Shown: positions 1-24,128 of the stretch, in pieces
How positions within the stretch are numbered: position 1 is the stretch's first letter
How the letters are laid out: each line of letters opens with the position of its first letter
IMG/VR virus record: IMGVR_UViG_3300046512_000053
Coordinates: 1 to 24,130 of that record
Origin: a virus
Strand: one strand, 5' to 3'
Length of the DNA stretch: 24,130 nt
The notes under the pieces: model-generated
The model's database searches: none
The model's input: only the letters and a program-made list of their open reading frames with translations
What the model was told of the DNA's origin: nothing
Program-made: the position numbers and the translations under genes

Positions 1-1629
1 GTTCTCAGGCGTGAAGATCGTGACCGGCGTGTCGTCGCGGTCGATCCGGATGACGCCTTCACCATTGCCGTCGTCGAAGAAGCGAGCGGCCATGATGCCG
101 CACATAAAGTTGATGGCGTCACGACCGCCGCGGGCCTCAGTGATCAGGCCGTTGAAGGTGAAGCGCGGCTTGCCTGAAGCGGTCGGCGTGTCGCACCAGA
201 CACCAGCAGCGTAGACGTCCCACTTGTTCAGCGTGATCGGGTAGTAGGCATTCATGCCGTACCGATCGTTGAGCACCAGGTCGTTGACGATGTAGGCCAG
301 GTTGTTGGTGTAGGCGAGCTTCCAGGCGCCGTCCCAGAAACCAGTGTGGACACGAGTGGCTGGGTTGTAGTTCGAGGGAACGCGGACGATGCGGCCCAGG
401 TATACGCCCGAGAAATCCGGGACCGACGAGAACTGTTCGCTGGCACGGGCCACGAGCTGCGTGACAGCCAGGCCTGGGAACTTGTAGCCCTTCGCGGTGA
501 CTTCCTGGAACGACTCCCAGGTGATGCTGAAGAAGAGCTCGGTCGTGTCAATGGGCGACGTCTTGGTGACGCGCCACATGTAGGGCTCGTCCACCCGGTC
601 GACCGGGATGCGGAATTCCTTGGGGAAAGCAGAGGTGGTCTTGGCAGTGATCGCCACCTCGCCGTTCGTCAACGTGACGCTGCCGCCAGTGCCGTTCTCA
701 CCGAAGGTACCAGGACGCAGCGAGGAGCCGGCGATGATCCAGGCCGAGCCGTTGAAGAAGAACGCCCTGCCCTGCCCAGTATGCAGCCAGTAGTCGCCCT
801 GCTCGGGAACGAAGCCCACGATCTTAGGGCCGACGAAACCCTTCGTCTGCCTATCCGCACCCTTGGAGGATGCCTCGGCCCAGGTCCAGACGTTGTTGGC
901 GAACACCAGGCCGGCGGGGAAATACCAGCTGGAACCGTCGAAGATCTTTGGCTTGTAGTTGTTCGAGGTGTCGAACCAGATGCCGGCCTTGGCGGTCGAG
1001 ACCGGCTGGCTTGCCGCCCAGTAGGTTGGCCGGTCGCCAGGCGAGGCGTTGATCTTGGCCGTCTGCGTCTCGTCGCCATAGAAGACGTCGAAGCTGTCGC
1101 CAGAGATCTGCGGCGGAAGCGGATTGACCTCCGGAGTCCTGACGGGCCTCCAGCTGCTGTCGCTGACCTTCTTGTACTCGATGCGCCAGCGACCAGTGTG
1201 GTTGAACGTGCCTTTGTCGTTCTGCTGCGCCAGCTGGTTGATGGTGAAGCGAAGATCGACGTAGTCGACGTTGGTGTGCGTGCCCTGGCGGACGATCGCG
1301 ACACCCGAGGCCATCTCGGTGTTGACGGTGGTCGAGGAGCCGAACCCGCCCATGCGGGAGTAGATGTCCTCGCCCTGCTCGCTGCCCTTGTAGTCAATGA
1401 GCTCGAAATTATCGAAGTTGTTGGAGCCGCTATCGTCCTGGAGGTTTGTGGTTCCGATGCGGTAGGATTTGGCGCCGTTCTCCAGGCCGAAGATGGGGCC
1501 TTCTGAGACGCCGATGAGAGCTTCGACCACGTCGGTCGCGAAGAGACTGTCTCGAGTCTGGGTCGGTGACTTTGCAGAACCTCCCTTCGAACCGCTGAGT
1601 TTTCGAAGGGAGATATCATGTACTGTCAT
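1..1629 (-). CDS. J: Central tail tip / host-specificity protein J homolog (3' end beyond window)
   Basis: The frame is open from ATG at 1629 to the window edge, giving 543 codons with no stop; the C-terminal part lies outside. The start (MTVHDISLRKLSGSKGG) and the segment with VPSNYNP, FWDGAWKL, NDRYGM and VWCDTP (about residues 425-510) match the lambda J family, the tail-tip hub that contacts the receptor and channels DNA. It is the last gene of an M-L-K-I-J order, as in lambda. An in-frame TGA lies a few codons upstream, so 1629 is the first possible ATG; the ribosome site is weak. Roughly residues 165-300 look inserted relative to lambda J and hold two related aromatic motifs (GIWFDT...FDGSSWYF and GDYWLHT...FFNGSAWIIA). 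The receptor-binding C-terminus cannot be judged here. Confidence 0.93.
   Translation of the reverse strand, partial: MTVHDISLRKLSGSKGGSAKSPTQTRDSLFATDVVEALIGVSEGPIFGLENGAKSYRIGTTNLQDDSGSNNFDNFELIDYKGSEQGEDIYSRMGGFGSSTTVNTEMASGVAIVRQGTHTNVDYVDLRFTINQLAQQNDKGTFNHTGRWRIEYKKVSDSSWRPVRTPEVNPLPPQISGDSFDVFYGDETQTAKINASPGDRPTYWAASQPVSTAKAGIWFDTSNNYKPKIFDGSSWYFPAGLVFANNVWTWAEASSKGADRQTKGFVGPKIVGFVPEQGDYWLHTGQGRAFFFNGSAWIIAGSSLRPGTFGENGTGGSVTLTNGEVAITAKTTSAFPKEFRIPVDRVDEPYMWRVTKTSPIDTTELFFSITWESFQEVTAKGYKFPGLAVTQLVARASEQFSSVPDFSGVYLGRIVRVPSNYNPATRVHTGFWDGAWKLAYTNNLAYIVNDLVLNDRYGMNAYYPITLNKWDVYAAGVWCDTPTASGKPRFTFNGLITEARGGRDAINFMCGIMAARFFDDGNGEGVIRIDRDDTPVTIFTPEN
1581..1612 (-). repeat. Perfect 11-bp inverted repeat just inside the J gene
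   Basis: CTCCCTTCGAA (1581-1591) and TTCGAAGGGAG (1602-1612) are exact inverted copies around a 10-nt loop. In the J mRNA the hairpin begins about 17 nt after the start codon and covers codons of the N-terminal SLRKLSGSKGG stretch. It contains a Shine-Dalgarno-like GGGAG. A role in damping J translation is an inference. Confidence 0.6.
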
Positions 1630-5595: not shown

Positions 5596-5674
5596 TCAGG
5601 TCGGTCCCTCTAAGACGCAGCTTGCCATTTCGAAAATCGCCAAATTTCCGATTGACTTCTGATTCGTTTTATGA

Positions 5675-5755: not shown

Positions 5756-5842
5756 GTTTCTGCAGGAATTGTTAACGCAAGAGTGATTCCTTTCGGCCAA
5801 ATGATGTGGCATCTTGAACGAGTCGCTGAGTCGTGACAAGAA

Positions 5843-5863
5843 GGTACTCACCCCGTTAGTACC
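5843..5863. promoter_or_regulatory. Dyad symmetry upstream of ribbon-helix-helix gene (candidate operator)
   Basis: GGTACTCAC and GTTAGTACC flank a 3-bp centre and match as inverted copies at 8 of 9 positions. The dyad ends 13 nt before the ATG of the 59-residue ribbon-helix-helix gene, and the ribosome site GGAG (5866-5869) follows it directly. Autoregulation by the encoded protein is the simplest reading and is an inference. Confidence 0.5.
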
Positions 5864-5876
5864 GCGGAGTTAGTTA

Positions 5877-6056
5877 ATGAAAGCCAAAGACGCTGTTTTG
5901 ACGATCAAGATTGAGCAGGAGCTTCGCGAAGCTTTCGCAGCTGAAGCTGCAGCTCAGGATCGTCCAGTCTCAAGTGTTCTTCGGGAATTGATGCGCGACT
6001 ATCTGAGCCGTCGTCGGCCGATGGCTGAGATGCGTCACGATCAGCAAAGCGCCTGA
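5877..6056 (+). CDS. Small ribbon-helix-helix DNA-binding protein
   Basis: This 59-residue protein has the ribbon-helix-helix pattern: a short strand (AVLTIKIEQ), a first helix (ELREAFAAEAAAQD), a turn at RPVS, and a second helix (SVLRELMRDYLSRR), then a polar tail. Such proteins bind DNA as dimers, with the strand in the major groove. ATG at 5877 has GGAG seven nt upstream. It is on the strand opposite the tail genes, with a dyad just upstream and a second plus-strand gene 29 nt downstream. It may be a repressor or an antitoxin-like protein; the neighbour does not look like a known toxin, so a lone regulator is favoured. Confidence 0.78.
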   Translation: MKAKDAVLTIKIEQELREAFAAEAAAQDRPVSSVLRELMRDYLSRRRPMAEMRHDQQSA

Positions 6057-6085
6057 GCAACTTACCCCCGTATAAAGATTTCTCG

Positions 6086-6490
6086 ATGCCCAAAATCTTG
6101 AGTGGAGACTACAAGGGAACTGCGATCTGGCAGACCACTTTCCCTTGGTTCGGCAAACAGGCGAAATATTTCAAGGGCGTCATGATTGCTGACCCCGCCA
6201 AAGGCAAGATCTACACGAAGGACGAGATTGTCCGCGTGAAAGAACTTGGCGCCGCCACAGACTTCAACGCCAGTCAAGGTTTTGGCGCCGCTGTCGGCGG
6301 TGCGATGCTTGCTGGACCAGTTGGGGCCTTGGCTGCTCTGGGAGCTCGCAAGAAGTCGTTCACCTACGGGATCGAGTTCACAGATGGAATGAAGATCGTC
6401 GTTCGTGAAGAGAACCCGGATAGCTACAAGGACTTCGGGATTTTCAAGAATTATGTCGAGCAGAAAGGCCTGCTCGACATTCAGTTCTAG
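6086..6490 (+). CDS. Hypothetical protein with glycine-rich hydrophobic centre
   Basis: The 134-residue protein is not recognised. A beta-rich N-terminal half (AIWQTTFPWFG, KGVMIADPAKGKIYTKDEIVRVKEL) is followed by a glycine/alanine hydrophobic segment at about 66-88 (FGAAVGGAMLAGPVGALAAL), then ARKK and a second beta part (YGIEFTDGMKIVVRE). The central segment could insert in a membrane, which would fit a superinfection-exclusion type role, but nothing proves this. No clear ribosome site precedes ATG 6086, and no upstream start is available in frame. It follows the ribbon-helix-helix gene on the same strand and meets the tape-measure gene tail to tail, sharing a CTAG in which both stops lie. 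Confidence 0.7.
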   Translation: MPKILSGDYKGTAIWQTTFPWFGKQAKYFKGVMIADPAKGKIYTKDEIVRVKELGAATDFNASQGFGAAVGGAMLAGPVGALAALGARKKSFTYGIEFTDGMKIVVREENPDSYKDFGIFKNYVEQKGLLDIQF

Positions 6491-9400
6491 CCACCCATCT
6501 GAACTTGCTGGATCAGCTTCTTGAGCGTACCACGGCGCTGGATGTTGTCCGCGACGTGGGCAACGACATCGTTCGGCCCCATCTGCGGCTGCTGATCCGG
6601 CGACACGATCCAGACGTTCACGACGCCTGAGCCCTGCTGCTGGTTGTCATTGGCTACGCGGCCGGCCAGCTGTCCTTCCGAGATCTGACGATTGCCCAGG
6701 TTGTTCATCTGGGTCAGCTTGTCTTCACCGATCATGGACACGGCCGACTGACGCAGCACCATTTCGCCAGGCATCAGCTTGTAGTTCCCGCCATCCCGGA
6801 ATGGTGAAACCCTGGTGCCATTCGCGGCTCGGTTCATACCACCGTTGGCTTTGCCTCCGACGACACCAAGCAGCATCTTGCCGAAGTCACCGAAGATACC
6901 CGAGCTGCCGGTCTTGCTGTCACCGCCGCCAAACAGCGACATGATGATCTGGTTGGCGAGAGCCTTGGCAATGATCTGGATAAACATCTGCAGAATCGTC
7001 TGACCGAGCTGCTTGAAAGCCTCGCCGGCCGACATGGTGCCCGACGCGATGTTGGTGAAGAACTGCGAGAAGCCCGAGGACAGGCCGTCGAGCACTTCAC
7101 CCCAGGTCGTCTCGAACTGCTTCGCCAGCGGGATCATCTGGTTGTTGGCGTCGATGATGCCGTTCTGCTGCGCCCAGGCGTTGGTGGCCGACTGGATGGC
7201 GCTGCTGACGGACGGACCCTGATTGGCCTTCGCGGCGTCGAGGAGGTTGTTGGTCTCCTTCAGCTCATTGTTCTTTTTGAGGAGGTCGTTCTCCATTGTC
7301 TTGAGCTGGAGAATTTCCGTGTCACGGGAGCCGTCAGGGTTGTTCGCTTCAGCCTCTGCGGCCATCCGGCGAACTTCAGCGATCTCCTTTTCGATCAGCA
7401 GAACGCGGTTGGCTGCAGCCTCACGCTCGCGATCGACAACGTTCTGCTGCAGCTTTTGGATGTCGGCCTGCGTGTACTTGCTGGCCATGTCAGGTTGCTG
7501 AGCGATATCAAGAGCCGCCTTGGCGCGGTCGACTGGCTTGTTGAGTTCCTCGTCCGCTGCCTTGTAGTATTCCTCCATTACCTTCTGGAGGTCGGAGTTC
7601 AGATTCTCACGCAGGCCGGCCTTCAGCTCCTTGAGCTTGTTGGCGTAGTCACCCGGATTTTCATCCTTGAGGGTGGCGTTCTCGGCGTCGAACTTCTTGA
7701 TCTCCTGATCGAGCAGCTGGTCGTGGGCATCGTGAATCTGCTTCTGCAGATCGGTCAAGGACTTGGCGTCGTCCGTGAAGCGGACTTGGGTCTTCAGGTT
7801 GCCGATACGAGACTTGAGGTTGGTGATGGCAGCGTCGGCCTGTGCCTCGATACCCTTGTTGATGTTCTCCTTGACCTGTTTGTCGGTGTCGTCCGCGATC
7901 TTCTTGACCTCGACATCGCCCGCGGTGTCAGTGCCAGACAGGAATGCCTGAGCGCGGGACATACGCTTCCCGACATGGTTCACCGAGGGGTCTTTGTTCG
8001 GGCGCTCGAACTGATTCATGAACGCCTTGGACAGCTCAGCCGGATCCTCATTCCCCGCCTTCAAGCGAGCAAAGAGGTCCGGATAGTCCCGCATAAGCTC
8101 CTTCAGTACGAAGTCGTACTGAGTGCCGATATCGTTCGAAGCCGTCCCACGCTTGATAGCCTCTGACCGAAGCTCGTTCCAACGGGTGCCACGCCACTGA
8201 GCAACACCATGGGCAGAGCCGTGGTCACCAACAGCGTCGGGATTGAACTCAGATTCAACAGACAGGTTGGAAGCGATTGCCGCCGCGCCCGCCTTGGAAA
8301 GACCCCGTTCCATGAAGTGCTTGATGGCCGACTGGGCGCTTCCAGCCATAGCCTTGCTGACGGGCTCGTTCAGATCGATGCCCTCGAGCTGAACGTCGAT
8401 GTTGCCGATCTTATTGAGCTCGCCACCGAGCTGAGCAGTCAGCTCCTTGATCTTGGTGACGAGCGCGTTCATCGCGTCACTCGGCGGGGTCTTTTTCAGC
8501 TCGGCCGTCGCAGCTTCGATCTTCTCGCGAAGTGCCTTTGCCGAATCCTGAACCGCTTCCTTCTGGCGCTGGAGCGACTCCTTCTGCAGGTCGAGAGCCT
8601 TGGCATCGTTCGCACGCTGCTGCTCGGCGGTCTCGGCGGCTGCACGCTCGAGGAAGTCACTGCGTTCATCCTGCAGCTTCTCGACAGCGTCAGTGTCCTT
8701 GTTCAGGTTCGCCAAGCGGATCAGCTCGTCATAGAAATCCACGATCTGCTTCGTGGTCGCGGCGCGGAGATCCTCGTAGCCCTTCTTCGCGGCCTCGAAT
8801 GTTTCGTTGTTCCGAGCGCCTGAGATCTGGCGCTGCCAGCGGGCAAGCTCCTTATTCTGGTTCGTCTCGGCTTTTTTGACTTCCTTGGTGACGTACTTCG
8901 TCTGAGAGGTGATCGCCTTCTGGCTTGCCTCGTTCAACTTGAGCTGCAGTGCTGCGAGCGCCTGGTCGATTCCAGACGATACAGCACTTCCGTCCAGGCC
9001 AGCCAGGTTCGGGTCGGAGGCGGACTCCTTTGCGAACTCGTCCTTGAAGGCCTGGACCGACTTATCACGTACCGTCTCGAGCCATTTGCGGACGGAGGCG
9101 TAGGCGGCAATCTTCTGCTCGTCGTTCATGCCGCCAGAGCTGATGCCGGCGATCCGATCGTTGAAGCCAGTCTGGATGTTCTGTGCCCGCTCTGTCAGGG
9201 CCGCATAGGACTTCGATCCCTGTACACCAGCGTTCGCCTCGTTCCGCAGGATGACAGTGAGGTCGGCGGTAGCCGCCGCGGTCTTCGTCAGGTTGGCGAC
9301 GATCGGATCGAGAGTCTCCTTCAGCGTCGTCAGGAAGCCGAGGTTGCCATCTGGATCGCCCTTGCGCTGAGCTACCGTGATCTGCTCATTCACGTATTTG

Positions 9401-11880
9401 CTGATCGACAGCGCCTGGCGGGCATCATGCACCTGGCTCAGATCACCCAACGAGATCCGCAGGGCACTTCCGATGTTCGTGCCGAATTTCTTGGAGATGG
9501 CATCGATCAGGTAGTTGTTCGAGGACGCTTCGACGGCGCCACCTACACCACCATTGGCCAGGTCCGCCTGCTCACGAAGATAGTTCGCCTGCGGTCCCTG
9601 GCGGTTGGTCAGCCTGTCGCGCTGTTCTTTCAGCTTGTCGATTTCAGCGCGGCGGGTCTCGGCAGCTTCTGCCAGTTCGGCCGCTCGGACACGAGAAGAC
9701 GTCGAGCGGAGATCGTTCAACTCACGGATCAGGTCCGTGACCGACATGGTGTCGTCCTTGATCGACAGGCCGAGTTCGTTGAACTGAGCGCGGAGCTCGT
9801 CGATCTTTGCCTGACGGAGGAAGCCATCCTTGTTGAGCTCGTCGCGGCGATCGATCAGGCCTTGGATCGCAGTATCAAGGGAGCCGATCTTGCTTTCAGT
9901 CGCGTCCGCTGCGCCCTTGAGGTCGTTGACCTTGGACTCGAGGGCGTCGATGCTGGTCGTCAGCTCATCCGCCCTGCCCTTCCAGGCGAAGAACGCACCA
10001 GTGGCAAGCACAACGCCGGCTACCAGCAGGCCGATCCAGTTCGAGGCCAGGACAGCCATAAGGCCAGCCAGTGCCCTGCTGAAGAAACCAAGCTCGACCG
10101 TGGCTCCAGCGACAACGGTGGAGGTCAGGGCGAACGCAGCGCTGAAGGTCGAGACCAGTGGGATCATCAGGCCGAGGCTCTTGATCAGGTTGCCGAACAG
10201 CGAAACTCCGAGCACTGTAGCGAGGACGCCAGCGACGGAACCAATACCCTGCAGGAGACCTGGAAACTGGTTAAGCCAAGAGACGATCTGTGTGGCGCCG
10301 ACCATTACCTTCTGGAACACCGCCAGCAGAGGTTCAAAAGCCGTGAAGGTCGAAGCGCCCAAAGTGTTCTGAAGCGTCTGAGCCGTGTTGCTCAGCGAAG
10401 TCATCTGGATCGCGTTTGCTTCAACAGCAGCAGCCGAGAGCGTGAAGCTCCGCTGCATATCCTTGGCCAGTTCAGTGTTGTTCGCCAGAGCCAGGTAGGC
10501 TGCAGCCGAGCGGGTCTCGAGAGATTCGTAGGCTTCAGCCGCGCCGAAGCCCGCCTTCTTCAGGGTCTCGATGACAGGCAGGAAGCCCTTCGTCTTGACG
10601 TTGATATCGTCGACGGACAGGCCCGCCGCTCGCAGGGTTGCGGTCAGCTTCTTGGACGGGTCTTGCAGATCGGTGAGCAGGGCACGGAAGCCAGTGCCCA
10701 TCGTCGAGGCCTTCACACCCGACTGGGACAGAGCGCCCAGGATCGAGGTCGTCTCCTCGAGCGAGATACCCATCGCTTCAGCAGTCGGGCCGATGTAGTT
10801 CAGCGACGTCTGGAGCTTGTCCACGGACAGCTTCGACAGGTTGAGCGCTGCGGTGAAGATGTTGGCGACGTCGCCCGTGCGGCTCGTTTCGAGGTTGAAG
10901 GCAGTCAGGGTCGAGGTGACGACGTCAACCGCCTGGGTGAGGCTCGAGCCGGTCGCGGTTGCGAACTGAGCGATCGAGCCAAGCGACTCCGTCACCTGCT
11001 TGGTGGAGAGACCGGCCTGGGCCAGTTCAGTTGCTGCCTTGGCGATCTCGACCGTGCTGTAAGGAACGGCCTGGGCTACATTCAGCAGGTTCTGTTTGAA
11101 GGCCACCATCTCGGAGTTGGTCGCGGTCGAGATGGCCTGGAACTGATGCAGCTCCTTGTCCAGCTCGACGATGCCAGAGCCGGCGCTCTTGATGGAGCTG
11201 AAGAGCCCACCGACTGCGGCGTAGTTCAGCATCACGCGACCCTGGATACCCATCAGGTCGGAGCCACCGTTGTAGTTCAGCTGCTCGAGGCGCTTGCGGC
11301 TAGCCAGTGCGGCCGAGCCATTCTCCCCTGCGTAGATTGTGTCGGCGCGGCGCTGGTCAGCCAGTCGGGATTTGGCCGAGAGTAAACGATCGCTGGAGTT
11401 GGCCACCTGCTGGGTGGCCGCATATTCTGCAGAGCGAATGCGGGCGTTGATCGCCTCTTCGGTCGTCTTCAGCAGGCTGACAGTCTGCTTGACGATCGCA
11501 TCCTTGACGCTGGCCTTCACGGCCTCGGTCGAATTCCTGATGTCGCTGATCAGCGACTGGGCAACGGCGCGGTTGATATTGTTGGCGTCGGCCGAGCGAC
11601 CGTTTACGCCCGAGGACTGGCCGACGCGACCGTAGAAGCCCCGCTCGATGGTGTCGGCCCGCGACTGAGCGCGGGCCTGCTGCGCGAGCGTTCCATCCTT
11701 GTAGAGATCGGTGATCTCCTTCAGGGCGGACTTCAGCTTCTTGACACCAGCCTCATTGACTTTGAGGGCCTGGTTGAAGTCGGCTGAGATACCGTTCAGT
11801 TGTTTACGAAGCGCCTCCAGCTCCTGTCGAGCTTCCTGAGTGTTCAGTTCGTAATCAACTTCAAAGGTATTCTCAGCCAA
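6487..11880 (-). CDS. H: Tape measure protein with embedded tail lysozyme domain
   Basis: The 1797-residue protein sets tail length and is ejected with the DNA. A coiled N-terminus is followed by a TP901-type core (about 215-470; VPYSTVEIAKAATELAQAG, YIGPTAEAMGISLEE), hydrophobic membrane-like segments (about 540-635), and long charged coiled coils (640-1170). A phage tail-lysozyme domain spans about 1181-1312 (FMERGLSKAGAAAIASNL, VESEFNP with the likely catalytic Glu, GVAQW). The C-terminus resembles lambda H (WGEVLDGLSSGFSQFF, GGMNRAANG, LMPGEMVLR). It starts at TTG 11880; AGGAGG lies 5 nt upstream and no ATG is close, so this start is well supported. The start overlaps the end of the T frame by 8 nt, the expected G-T-H arrangement. 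The size implies a long tail. Confidence 0.93.
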   Translation of the reverse strand: MAENTFEVDYELNTQEARQELEALRKQLNGISADFNQALKVNEAGVKKLKSALKEITDLYKDGTLAQQARAQSRADTIERGFYGRVGQSSGVNGRSADANNINRAVAQSLISDIRNSTEAVKASVKDAIVKQTVSLLKTTEEAINARIRSAEYAATQQVANSSDRLLSAKSRLADQRRADTIYAGENGSAALASRKRLEQLNYNGGSDLMGIQGRVMLNYAAVGGLFSSIKSAGSGIVELDKELHQFQAISTATNSEMVAFKQNLLNVAQAVPYSTVEIAKAATELAQAGLSTKQVTESLGSIAQFATATGSSLTQAVDVVTSTLTAFNLETSRTGDVANIFTAALNLSKLSVDKLQTSLNYIGPTAEAMGISLEETTSILGALSQSGVKASTMGTGFRALLTDLQDPSKKLTATLRAAGLSVDDINVKTKGFLPVIETLKKAGFGAAEAYESLETRSAAAYLALANNTELAKDMQRSFTLSAAAVEANAIQMTSLSNTAQTLQNTLGASTFTAFEPLLAVFQKVMVGATQIVSWLNQFPGLLQGIGSVAGVLATVLGVSLFGNLIKSLGLMIPLVSTFSAAFALTSTVVAGATVELGFFSRALAGLMAVLASNWIGLLVAGVVLATGAFFAWKGRADELTTSIDALESKVNDLKGAADATESKIGSLDTAIQGLIDRRDELNKDGFLRQAKIDELRAQFNELGLSIKDDTMSVTDLIRELNDLRSTSSRVRAAELAEAAETRRAEIDKLKEQRDRLTNRQGPQANYLREQADLANGGVGGAVEASSNNYLIDAISKKFGTNIGSALRISLGDLSQVHDARQALSISKYVNEQITVAQRKGDPDGNLGFLTTLKETLDPIVANLTKTAAATADLTVILRNEANAGVQGSKSYAALTERAQNIQTGFNDRIAGISSGGMNDEQKIAAYASVRKWLETVRDKSVQAFKDEFAKESASDPNLAGLDGSAVSSGIDQALAALQLKLNEASQKAITSQTKYVTKEVKKAETNQNKELARWQRQISGARNNETFEAAKKGYEDLRAATTKQIVDFYDELIRLANLNKDTDAVEKLQDERSDFLERAAAETAEQQRANDAKALDLQKESLQRQKEAVQDSAKALREKIEAATAELKKTPPSDAMNALVTKIKELTAQLGGELNKIGNIDVQLEGIDLNEPVSKAMAGSAQSAIKHFMERGLSKAGAAAIASNLSVESEFNPDAVGDHGSAHGVAQWRGTRWNELRSEAIKRGTASNDIGTQYDFVLKELMRDYPDLFARLKAGNEDPAELSKAFMNQFERPNKDPSVNHVGKRMSRAQAFLSGTDTAGDVEVKKIADDTDKQVKENINKGIEAQADAAITNLKSRIGNLKTQVRFTDDAKSLTDLQKQIHDAHDQLLDQEIKKFDAENATLKDENPGDYANKLKELKAGLRENLNSDLQKVMEEYYKAADEELNKPVDRAKAALDIAQQPDMASKYTQADIQKLQQNVVDREREAAANRVLLIEKEIAEVRRMAAEAEANNPDGSRDTEILQLKTMENDLLKKNNELKETNNLLDAAKANQGPSVSSAIQSATNAWAQQNGIIDANNQMIPLAKQFETTWGEVLDGLSSGFSQFFTNIASGTMSAGEAFKQLGQTILQMFIQIIAKALANQIIMSLFGGGDSKTGSSGIFGDFGKMLLGVVGGKANGGMNRAANGTRVSPFRDGGNYKLMPGEMVLRQSAVSMIGEDKLTQMNNLGNRQISEGQLAGRVANDNQQQGSGVVNVWIVSPDQQPQMGPNDVVAHVADNIQRRGTLKKLIQQVQMGG

Positions 11881-12540
11881 GCGTGCCTCCTATTTCGGCA
11901 AATGCTTTGGCGAGCTCGTCGAAGGATTGAATCGCTTCGCTTTCGTTAGGTGCGGAGTTTCCTCCCCCTCCTCCAAGCGCTTCATCCACTACCAGGCGGA
12001 ACGTCTCATATTCCTGGTAGTATCCGGCCATTCGCTCCTGGGATTTTAAGCTCACCAGGGTGGTCAGATCCTCGAGGGAGTGTGACCAGTACACTTCCTC
12101 GAGTAGGCTGGGACGGACGCCCAGCGCCCAAATCAGGGAGTCGCGGAAGCTAAGTCCTTCAAGCCAGCCATGGAAGACTTGAGGCCCTCGAGCAGCTCCT
12201 TGTGGTTTTCGACGTGCTTGGCTGACTTTGCCAAGCGCCGCATGAAAAAACCCATCAGGTGAGCTCCCGCCCAATCAAGGATGCGCTCGATGTCGTCGAT
12301 CGAGATGTCGATATCGTCGATGTCTTCGACGGGCTTCAGTACCTTGCCGGTCACCTTCCGCTCAGCAAGTACAGCGGCGAGAATCTCGGCACGGAGGCCG
12401 TCGTCCAGCGACATGGCCGGCACAACTTCAGGCGAGCCGACGAGCAGAGAAAGTGCGTTCAGGAGTCCATAGGACATGAACAGTTCACGTTCATTTCCGT
12501 CCTGGGTAATCGAGAGTTTGTCGTTGGTTTTTTCGGTCAT
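11873..12540 (-). CDS. GT: Tail assembly chaperone G-T, made by -1 frameshift
   Basis: The T frame (stop at 11873) has no convincing start of its own and overlaps G. A -1 slip at GGGTTTTTTC (minus strand, 12253-12244) joins the first 98 residues of G to 124 residues of the T frame, giving about 222 residues. The junction reads HLMGFFHAALGK. The T part (WLEGLSFRDSLIWALGV, SLEDLTTLVSLKSQERM, a glycine run, SFDELAKAFAEIGG) is protein-like after the slip. In lambda, G-T binds the tape measure through the G part and recruits tail tube subunits through T; the same position and order are seen here. The fusion is inferred from the cassette and gene order and not demonstrated. Confidence 0.85.
11878..11891 (-). 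promoter_or_regulatory. Strong ribosome binding site fixing a TTG start of the tape measure gene
   Basis: On the minus strand AGGAGG (11886-11891) precedes TTG (11878-11880) by 5 nt. The unusual start codon with a consensus Shine-Dalgarno lies inside the last codons of the T frame, suggesting tuned or coupled translation of the tape measure. Confidence 0.75.
12133..12540 (-). CDS. G: Tail assembly chaperone G
   Basis: The zero-frame product from ATG 12540 is 135 residues (MTEKTNDKLS...LASATP). It is acidic, with a run of Asp/Ile (EDIDDIDISIDDIERIL), and is helical towards the C-terminus. The position between the major tail protein and the tape measure, and the overlap with a second frame, identify it as the G-type chaperone that coats the tape measure before tube assembly. 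An in-frame ATG 13 codons upstream (12579) lies in the loop of a strong hairpin and lacks a ribosome site. ATG 12540 has GTGGA at suitable spacing and is preferred. Confidence 0.85.
   Translation of the reverse strand: MTEKTNDKLSITQDGNERELFMSYGLLNALSLLVGSPEVVPAMSLDDGLRAEILAAVLAERKVTGKVLKPVEDIDDIDISIDDIERILDWAGAHLMGFFMRRLAKSAKHVENHKELLEGLKSSMAGLKDLASATP
12216..12268 (-). promoter_or_regulatory. Three-part -1 programmed ribosomal frameshift signal
   Basis: In mRNA order: a Shine-Dalgarno-like GGGAG (12268-12264); 10 nt; the slippery stretch GGGTTTTTTC (12253-12244), which contains both G GGT TTT and T TTT TTC in the G frame; a 7-nt spacer; and a perfect 7-bp stem GCTTGGC/GCCAAGC with a 7-nt loop (12236-12216). 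An internal Shine-Dalgarno, a slip site and a 3' hairpin are the same elements that drive -1 shifting in E. coli dnaX. Confidence 0.85.
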
Positions 12541-12567
12541 CAAAGATCCACTAAGTTCAAACAATTG

Positions 12568-12594
12568 CGCCCCAGTCATGTGGTGACTGGGGCG
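12568..12594 (-). terminator. Perfect 11-bp hairpin between major tail gene and G
   Basis: CGCCCCAGTCA (12568-12578) and TGACTGGGGCG (12584-12594) are exact inverted copies with a 5-nt loop. It lies 48 nt after the major tail stop and 27 nt before the G start. There is no clean T run on the minus strand (CAATTGTTTG follows), so it may be an attenuator or a 3' mRNA-stabilising stem, and not a full terminator. Either would help the tube protein be made in excess of G. Confidence 0.6.
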
Positions 12595-18344: not shown

Positions 18345-18767
18345 TTAGCGGGCCGAGCGGAAGGCGCCGATGTGGCGAGCCGGCTGGGTTTCGAGATCGC
18401 CAGGGCGGTCGTCAGCATTGCCGCCGGCCTTGAGCACGAGCGTGTTGGAATGCTCAGCGATCAGAGCGGACAGCTCGGTGACCGTCTTAGGCAGTTCAAC
18501 GTTGAGCTTGCCGACCTTTGTGAGGACGCCCTGGGCAACGGCCGAGAGAGCGGCTACGGCGGTATCGCGCTCGGCAGTAACAGCGGCGACGTCGACGGCC
18601 TTAGCAGCGGTGAGCTGCGTGCTGAGATCAGCGATCGAGGCATCGCGTTCGACGATGGTGGCTTCCAGAGTGGCGACCTTGCCGGTTGCTTCCGTCACGT
18701 CGCGCTTGGCATTGGTGAGGTCGGCCGTCGTGGTCGTCAGGTTGGCGACGAGAGTTGCGAGATCCAT
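18345..18767 (-). CDS. Nested scaffold protein from an internal start
   Basis: Within the protease-scaffold gene an in-frame ATG at 18767 (Met232) is preceded by AAGGA seven nt upstream, a better ribosome site than that of the parent gene. It would yield a 140-residue coiled-coil protein consisting of the scaffold part alone. In lambda, Nu3 is made in this way from inside gene C, so that free scaffold outnumbers protease. The internal start is seen in sequence; its use is inferred. Confidence 0.65.
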   Translation of the reverse strand: MDLATLVANLTTTTADLTNAKRDVTEATGKVATLEATIVERDASIADLSTQLTAAKAVDVAAVTAERDTAVAALSAVAQGVLTKVGKLNVELPKTVTELSALIAEHSNTLVLKAGGNADDRPGDLETQPARHIGAFRSAR

Positions 18768-19460
18768 AAGATTTTCCTTGGGTGCAGTTGCTGTTGCGAG
18801 CAGGACGAGGGAGTTCGGGTCCATCCCGGAAGCTGCGAGGCTTTCGAGGGACTGGCCGAAGTGCGACCGGTCGCGGGAAACGATCCGAGCATTTTGGGCG
18901 CCACCCTGGCCGACGAGGGACAGCTCGAAAAACTTGTCGAGGCCGACCATGCGGGCGTAGACGCCGTCCTTGCCAACCTGGTTTCCGTCGTTGTCCGTGC
19001 CTGACCAGATGTTCTCGCCCGAGGAGTCGGGACCGAAGTAATCGAAGCCTGACTTGGAATTGAGCATCTGCTTCGCGAGCACCGACACAGAGACCTGGTC
19101 GACGCTGCCAGCTTCGATCTTCGTCGCCTCTGCATTGGCAGTCGGGTCGAGGAAGAACAGCACGCGGAGTTCGGATTCGACGCCCGTGTCCTTGACCTCG
19201 CCGTGGAAGACGCGGCCGATCGGAAGTGGGGAAGTGTTGTGCATGATCTGCACGGGGCGAGATTCACGCTTCAGTTCGCCCGCCATCTCGAGCAGGAAGG
19301 CACGATCGGCGCGAGCGCCCTTGTAGAGAGGGTGTTCTTTCCGGATCGGGAGGGTGTTAAAAGCAATCGCTTCGTAAACACGCAGGGCATCGACATCGAC
19401 ATCGCCCGCAGATGCGGCGAGAAGATCTCGGATAGCCTGTGTTTTTTCGATTTGCTTCAT
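18345..19460 (-). CDS. Prohead protease with C-terminal scaffold domain
   Basis: In this 371-residue protein residues 1-200 look like a U35/HK97-type serine protease: His74 in VQIMHNTSPLPIG, Ser124 or Ser126 in GSVDQVSVSVL, then FFELSLVGQGGAQNARIVS (about 177-195). It cleaves scaffold and capsid N-termini during head maturation. Residues 232-340 form a coiled coil (VANLTTTTADLTNAKRDVTE, LEATIVERDASIADL) typical of scaffold. The C-terminus (ARHIGAFRSAR) is basic and could bind capsid subunits. This C-Nu3-like layout precedes D and E as in lambda, although lambda C is a different (S49-type) protease. A 7-bp inverted repeat lies just before ATG 19460. Confidence 0.85.
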   Translation of the reverse strand: MKQIEKTQAIRDLLAASAGDVDVDALRVYEAIAFNTLPIRKEHPLYKGARADRAFLLEMAGELKRESRPVQIMHNTSPLPIGRVFHGEVKDTGVESELRVLFFLDPTANAEATKIEAGSVDQVSVSVLAKQMLNSKSGFDYFGPDSSGENIWSGTDNDGNQVGKDGVYARMVGLDKFFELSLVGQGGAQNARIVSRDRSHFGQSLESLAASGMDPNSLVLLATATAPKENLMDLATLVANLTTTTADLTNAKRDVTEATGKVATLEATIVERDASIADLSTQLTAAKAVDVAAVTAERDTAVAALSAVAQGVLTKVGKLNVELPKTVTELSALIAEHSNTLVLKAGGNADDRPGDLETQPARHIGAFRSAR

Positions 19461-19536: not shown

Positions 19537-19830
19537 ATGATTAATGATGAACCAAAAGAACGCTACGAGCCGCGGTATGACTGGCGAGAGACGGTCGATT
19601 GCGAAGGGATGCAAGACTACTGTTCCTGGGATGACGGCGTGCAGTTCGGCCGCATTCACAAGGACCGCGTAACCTATTCAAAACAGGGCCACTGGAAGTG
19701 GGCGATCAACTATATTCCTTGGTGCAGGCAAACCATCACGCCCCACCATGGGTGGGAGCCAAAGATGAGCGAGGCGATCCGCCAGGTGGAGGAACTCTAC
19801 GATCGCCTCAAGCAGCTACATGGCCGCTAG
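19537..19830 (+). CDS. Hypothetical plus-strand small protein, tryptophan-rich
   Basis: The 97-residue protein is not recognised. It is polar and aromatic-rich, with several tryptophans (YDWRETVDCEG, YCSWDDGVQF, GHWKWAINYIPWCRQ), three cysteines, and a C-terminal helix (SEAIRQVEELYDRLKQLHG). Amino-acid composition and the fit between flanking genes argue that it is real. It runs against the structural genes, diverges from the protease gene, and meets the esterase gene tail to tail at a CTAG shared by both stops. No clear ribosome site precedes ATG 19537. It is probably an accessory gene; function unknown. Confidence 0.65.
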   Translation: MINDEPKERYEPRYDWRETVDCEGMQDYCSWDDGVQFGRIHKDRVTYSKQGHWKWAINYIPWCRQTITPHHGWEPKMSEAIRQVEELYDRLKQLHGR

Positions 19831-21059
19831 GCGACAAGCTGCGCTGCCAGTGCCGCAGCCATAACGTTGGCCATGTAGCTGTTTGGGTGAGTTCCATCTG
19901 CAGTCGGGACTGGTGGGGCCGGCCAGATCAAACTATCACGAGCGCTCATTGCAACATCTGCCGCGTCAATCACCTTGCTGACCTTGGCTGGCTTTGCACG
20001 GATCGAAGTGTTCAACGCAACGAGTGCGGCCATGGTACCGTCTGTGCGTCCAGACTGATTTGCAGTCGTTGCGTATCCGTCCGTCGAAGCAGCACGAGGT
20101 GTCAGGGTTGTCTGGGCGATCGTCTTCCCTGGGAAGATATCATAGATTGTCTGATGATCGGCTAGGACCTGAGCTTGTGTGCGAGCAAGCCGCAGATCGT
20201 TGATACCGTGTTCGCTGATTACATCCGTGAAAGAGAGGAGCGCGACGAACGGGGTAACCAGGCTGAGTGCCGTTGCAAATTCGGTGGCCTGTTGCCCTGG
20301 TTTGGTGATTTTGACGTAGGGGTAGCCATAGACGTCGAGGGCTCGGGCAATCCAACCAGAAGCGCGCTTTGCTCCTACACCTGTGATGTCACCTTCTCCG
20401 AAGGCAATGCTATCTCCCACGATCACCCAGCTACGAGCATTGGCCGATGCGATGTCACCAATCATAGCGGTTGCGCCGAAGGTGGTGACTGCCGAGGTTG
20501 CAGAAATCGTTCCAGAGTTCCCGAGATCCGACGCAGAGTTGCCGTCTGGGATGCCGATGACCTGGGAGCTCGCAGGTGTCTGCTGGCACGGAAATGTCGA
20601 CACGACGCCGCCCACGTTAACAGTGCGCTCCCAGAACTCAGCCCCTTTAGGGATGGTGAGATTGATGGCGTCGGATACCACGTTGTCCGTCGAGATTGTG
20701 ACGGTTGGTTGCCCTGCCCAGGTCACCTGCGTGAAAATACCCGCTGGGTATTCGATGAATCGCTTGATGGTGCGGGTGGATGCAAGCTGTGGCTGAGTGC
20801 CGGCGATGACGAAGTTTGCGTCGATAGTCCTGAAATTCGAGATGTCGCCGTCGCTATGTGCAAAGTGCGAACGCCTCGACGTGTAGTTGACGGGCACAGA
20901 GGCCGTCATTGTGGGCACCTGGAATCGGTTTGCGACGATGCCCGTCGTCTTCTGAGGTGTTGGTGTTACGACAACAGGCGGTCGCTTGATTACGACCGAT
21001 GCCCCGAGCCGAAGCTTGAGGCCCCGGAGGCCCCCGATGGAGGTCCGGAGGCCCCGCAT
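19827..21059 (-). CDS. SGNH/GDSL-type esterase in the fibre cassette
   Basis: The 410-residue protein has the catalytic blocks of SGNH hydrolases: VIVGDSIAFGEGD (about 213-225, nucleophile Ser in GDS), SEHGINDL (about 281-288, the N of block III), and DGTHPN (about 386-391, the Asp-His pair). Residues 1-200 are strand-rich with a proline/threonine linker near the start (RPPVVVTPTP) and probably attach it to the virion. Such enzymes commonly remove acetyl groups from polysaccharides, so it may trim host capsule or O-antigen during adsorption. Its ATG overlaps the upstream stop (TAATG). The substrate is an inference from context. Confidence 0.85.
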   Translation of the reverse strand: MRGLRTSIGGLRGLKLRLGASVVIKRPPVVVTPTPQKTTGIVANRFQVPTMTASVPVNYTSRRSHFAHSDGDISNFRTIDANFVIAGTQPQLASTRTIKRFIEYPAGIFTQVTWAGQPTVTISTDNVVSDAINLTIPKGAEFWERTVNVGGVVSTFPCQQTPASSQVIGIPDGNSASDLGNSGTISATSAVTTFGATAMIGDIASANARSWVIVGDSIAFGEGDITGVGAKRASGWIARALDVYGYPYVKITKPGQQATEFATALSLVTPFVALLSFTDVISEHGINDLRLARTQAQVLADHQTIYDIFPGKTIAQTTLTPRAASTDGYATTANQSGRTDGTMAALVALNTSIRAKPAKVSKVIDAADVAMSARDSLIWPAPPVPTADGTHPNSYMANVMAAALAAQLVA

Positions 21060-21406
21060 TAGGCAGCACTCACGACGTTGGCCTTGTCGCCAGCTTCGCA
21101 GGGGATGTCGCGGCTCTCGCCCGCGGCGATGTGTACACGGGTGTTGTCACGGTTGGTGCTGACCGCCTTCGAAGCATCCGGAGCTTTGCCACGGGCGACG
21201 TAGATCGGGCCGGTGGAAGGTGCGCGAACGCGAAACACAAAGGTGGACTTGACCGCAAGGTCACCTGGCGTGCCTACACCAGAAGCGACCTGACCCGTTG
21301 AACCGTTGACAGCGAGCGTCTCAGACCAGAGTGGGGAGAAGATTTCGCCACTTCCGGCCTTCAGGGCGACACCCATTTCGACGTGGGCACCTGTAAATTC
21401 AGCCAT
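21059..21406 (-). CDS. Hypothetical beta-rich protein of the fibre cassette
   Basis: The 115-residue protein is not recognised. It is small, strand-rich and low in charge (GHVEMG-type N-terminus, STFVFRVRAPSTGPIYVARG, NTRVHIAAGESRDIPC), without a signal peptide or membrane segment, and looks like a virion surface component or adaptor. It is translationally coupled to the SGNH esterase gene (TAATG), which suggests the two products act together, for example as a mount for the enzyme. A terminator lies just upstream of its ribosome site. Confidence 0.65.
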   Translation of the reverse strand: MAEFTGAHVEMGVALKAGSGEIFSPLWSETLAVNGSTGQVASGVGTPGDLAVKSTFVFRVRAPSTGPIYVARGKAPDASKAVSTNRDNTRVHIAAGESRDIPCEAGDKANVVSAA

Positions 21407-21445
21407 AGTGGATCTCCGAGGGAAAAGCGTGGAACGTGTTTCCCT

Positions 21446-21472
21446 AAAAATGACCCCTGCTCGGGGTCATTT
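21446..21472 (-). terminator. Intrinsic terminator after the DUF4376 gene
   Basis: AAATGACCCC (21448-21457) and GGGGTCATTT (21463-21472) are exact inverted copies with a 5-nt loop. On the minus strand the stem runs into TTTTT. It separates the collagen/adhesin/DUF4376 group from the two genes that follow. Confidence 0.8.
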
Positions 21473-21500
21473 CAATAAAGCATTGATTCGTAACGATTAA

Positions 21501-22199
21501 TTATGAGCCGCTTTGAGGCCAGTACGCTGGATTGGTCGCGAAATCCTCCGGGGGAGGAGACGATTGCTTCAACAGGAAACCTGCAAAAATGTGAGCCTCC
21601 TTGTGGCTCAGAGCCGCGTACCCAAACCGCATTGCTGTCTGAGCATCCATAGGGACCGTCGAGTTGTCAGCAGCGATCCAACGGAACTCAGCCGGTCCAG
21701 TGGGGTCGAGCAGCCGGCGCCAGGCCAGATTACCCGGTTGGGCGCCAAAAACAGTGATGGCGTCAGATGCTGCAGACTTTGCTCCAGCGATGTTCTCGCG
21801 ATCCTCCGGCCGGCACTGGTAAAAAGTGCCTTCGAAATAGAAACCCGCGTCGATGCGACGATCACGCTCCGCGTCGATCTCGGCCGAGGTGGGAGCCGCC
21901 ACCTTGTGCTCAGTCGAGCTCTTCACGAGATATTGGAAGGAGAGTTGGTGCTCGTGGAAGGACAACAGGTCGTTCATCTGGTTGTCCATGAACTCGTCGA
22001 TCGCTTCCGAGATCTCAGCGTTCGAAGCCCCTCGAGAGAGCCTGGACGGCGAAATGTCGATTAATCCACCGTGGTCGGAAGTGACCCCTGGGCAGCTGTC
22101 CGCTGTAAACGACCAGGTGTACTGGACAAGATTTATGAGACTGGCGTCCGTTGTCGAAAACCACAGCTTCGCAATGCTCACTTCACGCGAGAGATTCAT
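21501..22199 (-). CDS. DUF4376-containing fibre-associated protein
   Basis: Residues about 107-212 of this 232-residue protein match the DUF4376 pattern found in phage tail-fibre and fibre-assembly proteins: IDAERDRRIDAGFYFEGTFY, DRENIAGAKSAA, FRWIAADNSTVPMDAQTAM, then a helix ending FLLKQSSPP. The first 100 residues are a different, strand-rich region. It follows the glycine-rich protein by one base, so the two are probably co-translated, and it may chaperone or cap a fibre. A chaperone role is inferred from the family's neighbourhood and not from a known activity. Confidence 0.75.
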   Translation of the reverse strand: MNLSREVSIAKLWFSTTDASLINLVQYTWSFTADSCPGVTSDHGGLIDISPSRLSRGASNAEISEAIDEFMDNQMNDLLSFHEHQLSFQYLVKSSTEHKVAAPTSAEIDAERDRRIDAGFYFEGTFYQCRPEDRENIAGAKSAASDAITVFGAQPGNLAWRRLLDPTGPAEFRWIAADNSTVPMDAQTAMRFGYAALSHKEAHIFAGFLLKQSSPPPEDFATNPAYWPQSGS

Positions 22200-22200
22200 G

Positions 22201-23277
22201 TCAGGTCGTTCCTTGAATTATGCCAGTGTTGTTCAGCGTGCGAGCTGAGCCTGTAATCGCAGCGCCTGGCGCACCACCGGCTGCGCCAGCTGCTCCCGCT
22301 CCACCACCACCGGCGTTTCCGGAAGCCCCAGTGTTGCCAGTTGCGCCTGTGTTCCCTTGAGCACCCCAAGTGCCACCCGTGCCCCCAGTGCCACCGGTGC
22401 CTCCCGCGCCCGAGTTGCCTCCATTGTTACCGCCGCCCGCGCCAGGGTTCCCCCCAGTGGCGTTCTGGCCATAGCCTTGGCCGAGACCGCCGGCTCCACC
22501 TGTGCCGCCACCTGCGCCGCCCATGCCAGCGGCATACTGCCGGGAGACGTAGTAAAAGCGAGTGCTACCCGCGCTCGACGCCTGTGATCCCCGGACATAT
22601 AGGATGCTGCCTACTTGAATTGATGTAGTGGTGTTACTTGCGGCAGAAGAGTTGTTGTATACTTGGGATGTTCCCCAGAAAACGTTGAAACCTGTGTTGC
22701 CACCAGTGGTGCTCGCGTTGGCTGACCAAACGTTATTCTTAGGAGAGGTGCTCTGCCCATAAAATGGGCCCTCTGTTGCGGTGTAGCTACCTGAACCGCC
22801 TATCCCGCCAGTTCCGCCCAGACCGCCGCCGCCGCCGCCGCCCCGGATCGCTCCGGTGTTGTTGATCGTGACCCCGGCTGTGCTGACATTGATGGCGGGT
22901 CCGCCGACACCACTGTTGTTCGCGCCGCCTTTACCTTGAACCTCACCCACCACGTCGACCTGGAGAGCGCCGCCGAGGCCCGCGCCTGTGGTCAAAGCCG
23001 CGGCGGATACGGTCGTGCTACCGATGATGATGCCTGCGGCGATCACCACACGTTTCTTGGTTGTGGACGCCCAGTCGGCGCTACTGAACAGAGTTGAGAG
23101 CGTAACGTTGGTCGTGGTGGCTGCGATCGTGGCTACGATTTCGGCCGCGTAGAATTGGATCCACGCATCTGCCTGTTTGACGAATGCCTTCTGAGCCTCA
23201 ACCCAGGACGATCCCGATCGAACGAAGACAGACTTGACCTTCCCTTGGACATCATTCTGCTTCGCCCAACCCGTCAC
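22201..23277 (-). CDS. Glycine-rich adhesin-like tail protein
   Basis: The 358-residue protein has an N-terminal attachment part ([23 protein letters not shown], about 1-45), a beta region, then glycine-rich blocks ([20 protein letters not shown], and a long block of GGTGG/GAGG repeats) and a C-terminal [19 protein letters not shown]. Such blocks resemble phage receptor-binding tips in which polyglycine helices pack side by side (gp38-type adhesins and C-termini of some J proteins). A longer frame begins at GTG 23298, but GTG 23277 overlaps the collagen gene stop as GTGA and has AGGTGG upstream, so it is preferred. It is probably a receptor-binding component carried by the collagen-like fibre. 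Confidence 0.78.
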
Positions 23278-24128
23278 GACGCAGCCACCTGCAGCCACAA
23301 GTCTCCGTTCACGCCGTCTGCGGCGGTCGGTGCAGCCGTCGAGACGAAGATGTCACGGAAGGCCGCGTTCTTCAGACCAGTTGGCATAGGTCCGGTATCA
23401 CCTTTGACACCCTGAGCGCCTGTGTCGCCCTTTACGCCTTGGATTCCCTGATCACCTTTGATGCCCTGGATACCCTGGTCACCCTTCGCGCCCGTGAGAC
23501 CGGTGTCGCCTTTGACGCCCTGGACACCTTGGATGCCCTGGTCGCCCTTGGCGCCTTGCGGCCCTGTGTCGCCTTTCGGACCCGTCTCTCCGATGTCACC
23601 CTTCGGGCCGGCCACACCTTGGATGCCCTGGTCGCCCTGCGGCCCAGCTGGACCGATTGGCCCGACGACGCCCTGGATGCCCTGGTCGCCCTTGATACCC
23701 TGTATACCCTGGTCACCCTGGGGGCCGGCGGGTCCGACTGGACCGACCTCGCCCCTGGGACCAGCTACGCCTTGAATACCCTGATCACCTTGTGGGCCAG
23801 CTGGGCCGACAGGTCCACCTGATGGTCCGATCGGGCCTGTGTCACCCTGGTCACCCTTAGGGCCGAGATCACCTTTGACGCCCTGAACACCCTGATCGCC
23901 TTTCAGGCCCTGGATGCCTTGGTCGCCCTTTGGACCCTGAATACCCTGGATGCCCTGTATGCCTTGCTCGCCACGATCGCCTTTGTCGCCCTTCGATCCC
24001 TGGGGTCCAACTGCGCCGCGTGGCCCCGGCACGCCTTCGGTGAATACCTCCACGATCTCGGGAGGCTGTTCGATCACCAGCTCGATCAGCTGCGTCGGAT
24101 CGACGACGATCTCAATGACTTCAGTCAT
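23274..24128 (-). CDS. Collagen-like fibre protein
   Basis: The 284-residue protein has a hydrophobic/acidic N-terminal arm (residues 1-31, [20 protein letters not shown]), 72 Gly-X-Y triplets (32-248) broken once by a single extra glycine after triplet 24, and a 36-residue tail with [10 protein letters not shown]. Gly-X-Y tracts form trimeric collagen helices and occur in phage fibres; 217 residues would span roughly 60 nm. The triplets are rich in GDQ, GIQ, GPK and GPQ, so charge and not hydroxyproline would stabilise them. ATG 24128 lies 2 nt from the window edge, so an upstream extension cannot be excluded. It overlaps the glycine-rich gene by 4 nt. Confidence 0.85.
23385..24035 (-). repeat. 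Imperfect tandem repeats encoding the collagen-like tract
   Basis: The DNA is built from 9-nt units with larger recurring blocks, such as those encoding [13 protein letters not shown] (three copies) and [17 protein letters not shown]-type segments. Such blocks can expand or contract by recombination or slippage, changing fibre length in 9-nt multiples without breaking the frame. Confidence 0.8.

What the first reader, a model, noticed from the sequence alone, without database searches (positions are those of the whole stretch)
19827..24128. Receptor-binding cassette lies upstream of the head genes
Collagen-like fibre, polyglycine adhesin-like protein, DUF4376 protein and SGNH esterase are grouped before protease and capsid, far from J where lambda-type side-fibre genes normally sit. 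The set looks like one exchangeable unit for binding and trimming host polysaccharide.
Basis: inference. Interest (0 to 1): 0.5.

Follow-up and report, generated by a model that had tools for sequence, protein, structure and literature searches.

The report
Swappable phage adhesion genes among head genes
In this family of bacterial viruses, a set of genes for a fibre and an enzyme that probably bind and trim the host's sugar coat sits among the head-building genes, is swapped between near-identical viruses, and may stand in for the binding part of the tail-tip protein.

Summary
The named genes lie at the stated coordinates on the minus strand, in transcription order collagen-like protein, polyglycine protein, DUF4376, an unmentioned 115-aa protein, SGNH esterase. 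In a near-identical phage (G001) they lie between portal and the 'protease'-position gene. It is not one unit: a fibre half and an esterase half reassort.

Among 74 relatives the portal-protease gap is 11-732 bp in 53, holds mainly reverse-strand genes in one, and an insertion in 20; 14 of the 20 have adaptor, fibre, esterase or cassette-homologue evidence, and the tree needs at least 6 separate gains or losses. J is 1800 aa or longer in 3 of 22 phages with a separate fibre gene (here or just after J) and in 12 of 13 with neither; the cutoff was chosen after seeing the data, and insertion alone is not significant.

Best reading: an exchangeable virion adhesion module that substitutes for the C-terminal part of J. 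Tail tip, neck and capsid cannot be told apart here. A new variant of a known kind.

The parts
23274..24128 (-). collagen-like fibre protein, 284 aa
   Evidence: Pfam Collagen 119.9 bits, PHROG tail and tail fibre hits; 96% aa identity to G001, dS 0.33
22201..23298 (-). polyglycine protein, 365 aa, probable fibre-tip adhesin
   Evidence: phrog_10745 5.6e-49; weak PHROG 'tail fiber protein; host specificity' 0.0036; aligns full length at 43% with Paso 'receptor recognition protein' encoded just after the tail fibre gene; 64% aa identity to G001, dS 1.52
21501..22199 (-). DUF4376 protein, 232 aa, tail-fibre associated
   Evidence: Pfam DUF4376 6.6e-19; PHROG tail fiber protein 3e-6; 68% aa identity to G001, dS 1.49
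21059..21406 (-). 115-aa protein paired with the esterase; probable base or adaptor
   Evidence: Directly precedes an SGNH-type gene in window, L002, L005 and L025, and a 549-aa gene of unknown family in L007; AlphaFold model mostly beta, pLDDT 71; dS 0.18 against G001
19827..21059 (-). SGNH-type esterase, 410 aa, with a short N-terminal stretch shared by otherwise different enzymes
   Evidence: Invariant GDS 215-217, G255, ND 287-288, DGTH 388-391 in 7 aligned sequences; N-terminal stretch shared with L002, L005, L025 but absent from Rhizobium homologue L166; phrog_8480 1.8e-45; dS 1.32 against G001
19537..19830 (+). small opposite-strand ORF, 97 aa, that diverges together with the cassette
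   Evidence: phrog_12188 3.2e-21, function unknown; 76% aa identity, dS 1.23 against G001
18345..19460 (-). downstream flank: gene in the protease position, 371 aa
   Evidence: phrog_37797 2e-58, function unknown; 100% aa identity to G001, dS 0.04; found after portal in relatives
1..1629 (-). N-terminal part of J (central tail fibre), truncated by the contig end
   Evidence: 97.6-99% DNA identity to the J region of G001; J ORF in G001 1269 aa

Best explanation
The 19.8-24.1 kb block is an exchangeable host-adhesion cassette of a phage related to Seuss and JWF, inserted between portal and the 'protease'-position gene. Proposed mechanism: a small adaptor gene (off the window's end, seen in G001) and the collagen-like fibre attach to the virion, most likely at the tail tip (I give tail tip about 0.4, neck 0.33, capsid 0.2, not in the virion 0.07); the polyglycine protein is the tip adhesin and DUF4376 a fibre-associated protein; the 115-aa protein is the base for the SGNH esterase, which removes ester groups, probably acetyl, from host polysaccharide. 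The cassette stands in for the long C-terminal extension that J carries in relatives lacking separate fibre genes. Shown: gene content, position, exchange, repeated insertion, statistical association of short J with separate fibre genes. Inferred: virion location, binding, substrate, each protein's job. The confidence is for the adhesion-module reading, whatever the location.
For: (1) Exchange limited to the block. (2) The same interval holds other fibre or esterase genes in relatives: L003 670-aa and 385-aa fibres (PHROG tail fibre 2.7e-21, 1.2e-22); L005 with Peptidase_S74; L060 collagen-like fibre; L079 and L083 SASA carbohydrate esterases; L066 BppU_N above Pfam cutoff and L131 Gp77 fibre-tail adaptor 2e-15. 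(3) Recurrent: 20 of 74 portal-tree rows have the insertion, 14 changes, at least 9 forced by starred branches; for the 14 with family or cassette-homologue evidence, 10 changes, at least 6 forced. (4) Complementarity with J: J >=1800 aa in 3 of 22 with a separate fibre gene, 12 of 13 without, Fisher 6e-6; phylogenetic regression with insertion and downstream fibre as predictors: J 0.74-0.79 times as long with insertion, p 0.0015-0.008. (5) Complete SGNH catalytic blocks, dN/dS 0.11-0.21 in the diverged genes. (6) J of a relative without fibre genes at the site (G007, 3238 aa) has a CBM_4_9 carbohydrate-binding domain at 2655-2793 and a GH85_C match at 1607-1672.
Against: Insertion alone does not significantly predict J length (Mann-Whitney p 0.095; regression p 0.059 at ML lambda, 0.02 near Brownian); the association appears when fibre-size ORFs after J are counted too, and the 1800-aa cutoff and size rules were chosen after seeing data. 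Independent pairs give 4.2 the same way, 0 opposite, sign test p 0.06-0.25. G024 has both an insertion and a 2943-aa J; G006 (J at least 1854) and KB12-38 (2004) are also exceptions, and Seuss has a 1577-aa J with neither. For some 'neither' phages little sequence follows J in the contig (G045 937 bases, G023 2.6 kb), so a fibre gene there could be missed. Six of 20 insertions had no family evidence (only some of their genes were searched). Three of 10 ORFs after J that I scanned had no tail hit. The 110-aa adaptor assignment in the window's own lineage is below every threshold. Nothing shows these proteins are in virions.
Confidence: 0.72

Rival explanations
1. Capsid decoration (location rival): the collagen-like protein and the 115-aa/SGNH pair decorate the head, like the capsid turrets of HFTV1, whose base protein carries a trimer with a polysaccharide deacetylase-like domain.
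For: Genes lie among head genes; two-protein arrangement of small mostly-beta protein plus enzyme; HFTV1 precedent (PMC12494034 passages). An SGNH homologue lies between a protease-capsid fusion gene and portal in Rhizobium phage RHph_X2_26. L059 fibre hits a PHROG head decoration family at 1.8e-10 besides tail families.
Against: Association with short J points to a receptor-binding role; most PHROG hits with a named function are tail or tail fibre; BppU_N and Gp77 are baseplate or fibre adaptors by name; the 115-aa model had no convincing solved fold match.
Confidence: 0.2
2. Neck collar (location rival): the cassette builds a collar or whisker structure anchored at the portal-tail junction, like the lactococcal neck passage structure (NPS).
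For: Genes directly follow portal; NPS proteins carry an N-terminal BppU beta-sandwich plus carbohydrate-binding modules and the TP901-1 NPS is reported as expressed with the capsid and proposed to attach to the portal (PMC6669499 passages); BppU_N in L066, related domain in L111 and in the window's lineage by profile comparison.
Against: BppU domains also attach fibres at the tail tip (PMC7048315 passages), so the domain does not decide; the window's lineage scores below the BppU_N cutoff, and L059's first cassette gene showed no relation.
Confidence: 0.33
3. Ordinary cargo: a moron-type insertion that is not part of the virion (secreted or intracellular esterase and collagen-like protein).
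For: The same gap can hold unrelated cargo: L008 has a reverse-strand bacterial sugar transferase (Pfam Bac_transf 3e-42) and other reverse-strand ORFs.
Against: Recurrent fibre-type content on the late strand, tail-fibre homologies and complementarity with J.
Confidence: 0.07

Closest known systems
Staphylococcus phage 80alpha upper fibre FibU (gp68)
   Same: BppU-like N-terminal domain followed by a predicted collagen-like stretch in one adhesion protein (PMC7048315 passages); here a possibly BppU-like gene and a collagen-like gene are neighbours in G001.
   Different: FibU is a baseplate protein; here the genes follow portal, and the BppU-like assignment in this lineage is below threshold.
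Lactococcal neck passage structure (936 group, TP901-1)
   Same: Optional carbohydrate-binding fibre device, proposed to attach at the portal, generally excluding other decorations (PMC6669499 passages).
   Different: NPS is one protein; here several genes with an SGNH esterase, and no CBM family was found in the window's five cassette proteins by Pfam.
S16-type receptor recognition protein, via Rhizobium phage Paso gp47
   Same: The polyglycine protein aligns over its full length with Paso gp47 at 43%; Paso's annotation reports HHpred similarity to the S16 protein.
   Different: My own searches of solved structures found no such match.
Esterase tailspikes of Moo19, B2 and G7C; DEV gp53 fibre
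   Same: Virion-borne proteins with esterase activity or esterase-like domains (PMC11654681 and PMC10925440 passages).
   Different: Podophages; sequence relationship to this SGNH protein was not tested.
Lambda side tail fibre (Stf) arrangement
   Same: Separate fibre gene(s) with an accessory protein (recalled).
   Different: Stf lies after J (recalled); this set lies before the head genes.

Membership tests
SGNH/GDSL hydrolase | Four conserved blocks: GDS serine, oxyanion Gly, oxyanion Asn, DxxH | tested here: met
   GDS 215-217, G255, N287, D388/H391 invariant in 7 sequences; block assignment recalled
SGNH/GDSL hydrolase | Pfam curated score | tested here: not met
   Lipase_GDSL_2 23.4 bits against cutoff 32.9; but phrog_8480 1.8e-45 and esterase TesA 4jgg 2.7e-5 by profile. 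I therefore say 'SGNH-type', not member of that Pfam family
Collagen-like phage fibre | Collagen triple-helix repeats above curated score | tested here: met
   119.9 bits against 27.2
BppU-type adaptor / NPS | BppU_N beta-sandwich domain in the 110-aa gene of the window's lineage (L002, L003, L005) | tested here: inconclusive
   BppU_N 0.018 (L005) and LtfC 0.057 (L002), both below cutoff; relation to L111 (1e-7) and L066 (1.2e-5) by hhalign; L066 itself above BppU_N cutoff; AlphaFold model pLDDT 38, unusable
BppU-type adaptor / NPS | Located at neck or tail tip in the virion | not testable with these tools
   Needs virion microscopy or proteomics
S16-type receptor recognition protein | Sequence or profile match to the solved S16 protein | tested here: inconclusive
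   No match with the single sequence or 3-sequence profile; homology to Paso gp47 only
Lambda-type side tail fibre | Gene directly downstream of J | tested here: not met
   Cassette lies between portal and the protease-position gene
Exchangeable module | Divergence limited to the block in an otherwise near-identical relative | tested here: met
   (one relative, G001)

The most novel reading that the evidence does not exclude
The portal-protease junction is a general docking site in this phage family, where adaptor-plus-fibre-plus-esterase devices are inserted repeatedly and independently and take over receptor binding from the C-terminal part of J, possibly as a portal-anchored collar. Receptor binding would then be able to move between three genomic sites, with J growing or shrinking in step.
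Probability: 0.35. Interest if true: 0.65.

Novelty: new variant of a known kind. Interest (0 to 1): 0.52.

Why it matters
Host-range genes are usually looked for near the tail-tip genes. In this family a search there would miss the exchangeable part in a sizeable minority of phages. If the complementarity with J holds, it gives a simple way to ask how receptor binding moves from a fixed tail-tip domain to a separate swappable device, using existing near-identical phages that differ mainly in this block.

Tried and rejected
Considered and rejected: (a) rapid point mutation as the cause of divergence; synonymous divergence in most cassette genes is 1.2-1.5 while neighbours are at 0.00-0.14, so allele replacement fits better. 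(b) A simple 'insertion means short J' rule; not significant alone. (c) The 115-aa protein as a homologue of the small genes before SGNH in Rhizobium phages X2_26 and Y25; no similarity, and no match in the phage collection. (d) Fold of the 115-aa protein: no PDB match at E <= 0.001, no VIA-align Z of 5 or more, two unnamed viral predictions at 4.3e-4 and 5.0e-4; a family not listed is not excluded. (e) AlphaFold of the 110-aa adaptor: unusable. (g) The 669-1619 minus ORF: taken as a shadow frame, because that stretch aligns with the J region of G001. (h) Promoter and terminator scans found no more than shuffles; no Rfam match.

Literature: ten answered full-text searches brought up no title or abstract start describing this insertion site. 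Passages were read in PMC9959647, PMC10925440, PMC12494034, PMC12309495, PMC6669499, PMC13252515, PMC11654681 and PMC7048315; for other hits only the listing was seen. No paper was read whole.
Full report
What is there. The record is a 24,130-base IMG/VR phage record with its structural genes on the minus strand. Reading in transcription order from the high end: collagen-like protein, polyglycine protein, DUF4376 protein, a 115-aa protein, SGNH esterase, then the gene in the protease position, a small virion protein and the major head protein, and on to the tape measure protein and the start of J, which the contig end cuts.

Which phage. The capsid protein matches Achromobacter phage JWF, Caulobacter phage Seuss, Xylophilus phage Lumi and Pseudoalteromonas phage KB12-38 at 43-52% identity; their records are 78-85 kb. 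In all four, terminase, portal, the protease-position gene, a small gene and capsid follow each other with 56 to 642 bp between portal and the protease-position gene and no annotated fibre gene there. In the near-identical record G001 (locus L002) that gap is 5.1 kb and holds the same cassette as the window, preceded by a 110-aa gene that falls outside the window.

Exchange. Aligned in 500-base steps, the window is 90-100% identical to G001 except at 19.5-24.0 kb, where the blocks read 78, 74, 75, 95, 75, 64, 35, 82 and 90%; the last 130 bases are 99% again. Against G003 the rest is mostly 67-86% identical, with a second poorly alignable stretch at 5.0-6.5 kb; 19.5-23.0 kb hardly aligns at all and 23.0-24.1 kb, the collagen region, only in part. 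Synonymous divergence from G001 is 0.00, 0.14 and 0.04 in capsid, small virion protein and protease-position genes; 1.32, 1.49 and 1.52 in SGNH, DUF4376 and polyglycine; 1.23 in the small opposite-strand ORF at 19537-19830; but 0.18 in the 115-aa gene and 0.33 in the collagen gene. dN/dS in the diverged genes is 0.11-0.21. This looks like replacement of alleles under purifying selection, not fast point mutation, and it largely spares the parts that would anchor to the virion (inference).

Two halves. L003 carries the 110-aa gene, a short collagen protein and larger fibres but neither 115-aa gene nor SGNH; L004, L006 and L012 gave the same tblastn values, their ORFs were not listed. L007 carries the 115-aa gene and a 549-aa protein without the fibre half. 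L025 carries a fibre set that by eye resembles that of L003 together with an L005-type 115-aa/SGNH pair. The SGNH proteins of window, L002, L005 and L025 share their first ~22 residues though window and L002 are only about 29% identical to the other two over the whole proteins; a Rhizobium phage homologue at 53% lacks that N-terminus. This looks like a common anchor with a changeable enzyme (inference).

A recurrent site. A portal profile brought in more relatives (the best 80 of 175 viral hits, and 10 genome contigs). In a tree of 74 portal proteins, 53 rows have a gap of 11-732 bp, one (G007/L008) has 1.7 kb of mainly opposite-strand ORFs, and 20 have an insertion of 1.7-6.0 kb. The insertion pattern needs 14 changes, at least 9 forced by well-supported branches; with only the 14 insertions that have adaptor, fibre, esterase or cassette-homologue evidence it needs 10, at least 6 forced; these may be gains or losses. 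Contents include tail fibres, Peptidase_S74, two SASA carbohydrate esterases in L079 and L083, a BppU_N protein above Pfam's cutoff in L066 and below it in L078, and the fibre-tail adaptor family Gp77 in L131 (solved relative 8jou at 1e-5). Six insertions (G024, G031, L098, L103, L107, L120) had no such evidence; family searches covered only some of their genes. The tree is a quick one without bootstrap and with open forks near the base.

J. In G001, G003 and G004 J is 1268-1270 aa; in G007, with no fibre genes at the insertion site, it is 3238 aa, and in G008, whose contig lacks portal, 3259 aa. In G007 the extension contains a CBM_4_9 carbohydrate-binding domain. Across 37 phages insertion alone is not a significant predictor of J length (12 against 25, p 0.095). 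Several short-J phages without insertion have a fibre-size ORF directly after J; of 10 ORFs after J that were scanned, 7 had PHROG tail hits. Counting either site as 'separate fibre', J is at least 1800 aa in 3 of 22 against 12 of 13 (Fisher 6e-6; 5e-5 to 1.7e-4 with stricter size rules), and independent pairs go 4.2 to 0 (p 0.06-0.25). Phylogenetic regression on 35 phages gives J 0.74-0.79 times as long with insertion (p 0.0015-0.008) and 0.60-0.61 with a fibre-size ORF after J. The cutoff and rules were set after looking; the exceptions (G024, G006, KB12-38, Seuss) are real; and for G045 and G023 the contig ends 0.9 and 2.6 kb after J, so 'no fibre after J' is weak there.

What the proteins may do. 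The polyglycine protein aligns over its whole length at 43% with Paso gp47, annotated as receptor recognition protein on HHpred similarity to the S16 protein and encoded right after Paso's tail fibre gene; I could not reproduce the S16 match. The SGNH protein has all catalytic blocks. The 115-aa protein is predicted mostly beta at moderate confidence without a convincing solved fold. The 110-aa protein is related by profile to the L111 gene and the BppU_N protein of L066, not to the first cassette gene of L059, with sub-threshold hits to L-shaped tail fibre assembly proteins (E 0.26 and 0.79). Precedents exist for three virion locations: tail tip (80alpha FibU), neck (NPS) and capsid (HFTV1 turrets). 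I lean to the tail tip, then the neck, without evidence that separates them.

Verdict. A real, exchangeable, recurrently inserted cassette, most likely for adhesion, at an unusual genomic site. The kind (swappable receptor-binding module) is known; the site and its apparent complementarity with J did not come up in the ten literature searches listed under Tried and rejected.

Noticed in passing
window 1671-2729 (-): A 352-aa metallophosphatase-like gene (PHROG 'DNA repair exonuclease' 1.2e-34) is present in 7 of 8 relatives searched at 72-100% identity, directly before J where read; the annotations of Seuss and JWF show no gene there.
   Followed up: partly
window 5001-6500: A second stretch that hardly aligns with G003 although both flanks do: the region between tape measure and minor tail genes.
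   Followed up: no
L008 6720-8186: The portal-protease gap of this relative without fibre genes there holds opposite-strand ORFs including a bacterial sugar transferase (Pfam Bac_transf 3e-42), which might alter host surface sugars.
   Followed up: partly
window 11873-12579 (-): Two overlapping ORFs before the tape measure gene; the first is a tape measure chaperone (phrog_37198) and Seuss annotates a ribosomal slippage there, so a frameshifted chaperone is likely.
   Followed up: no
L047 9986-11769 (-): After the short J of G001 come three proteins of about 150 aa with similar starts, then a 186-aa one; similar sets follow J in G003 and G004.
   Followed up: no
L166 5606-7203: In Rhizobium phage RHph_X2_26 an SGNH homologue lies between a protease-capsid fusion gene (annotated major capsid protein) and portal.
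   Followed up: partly
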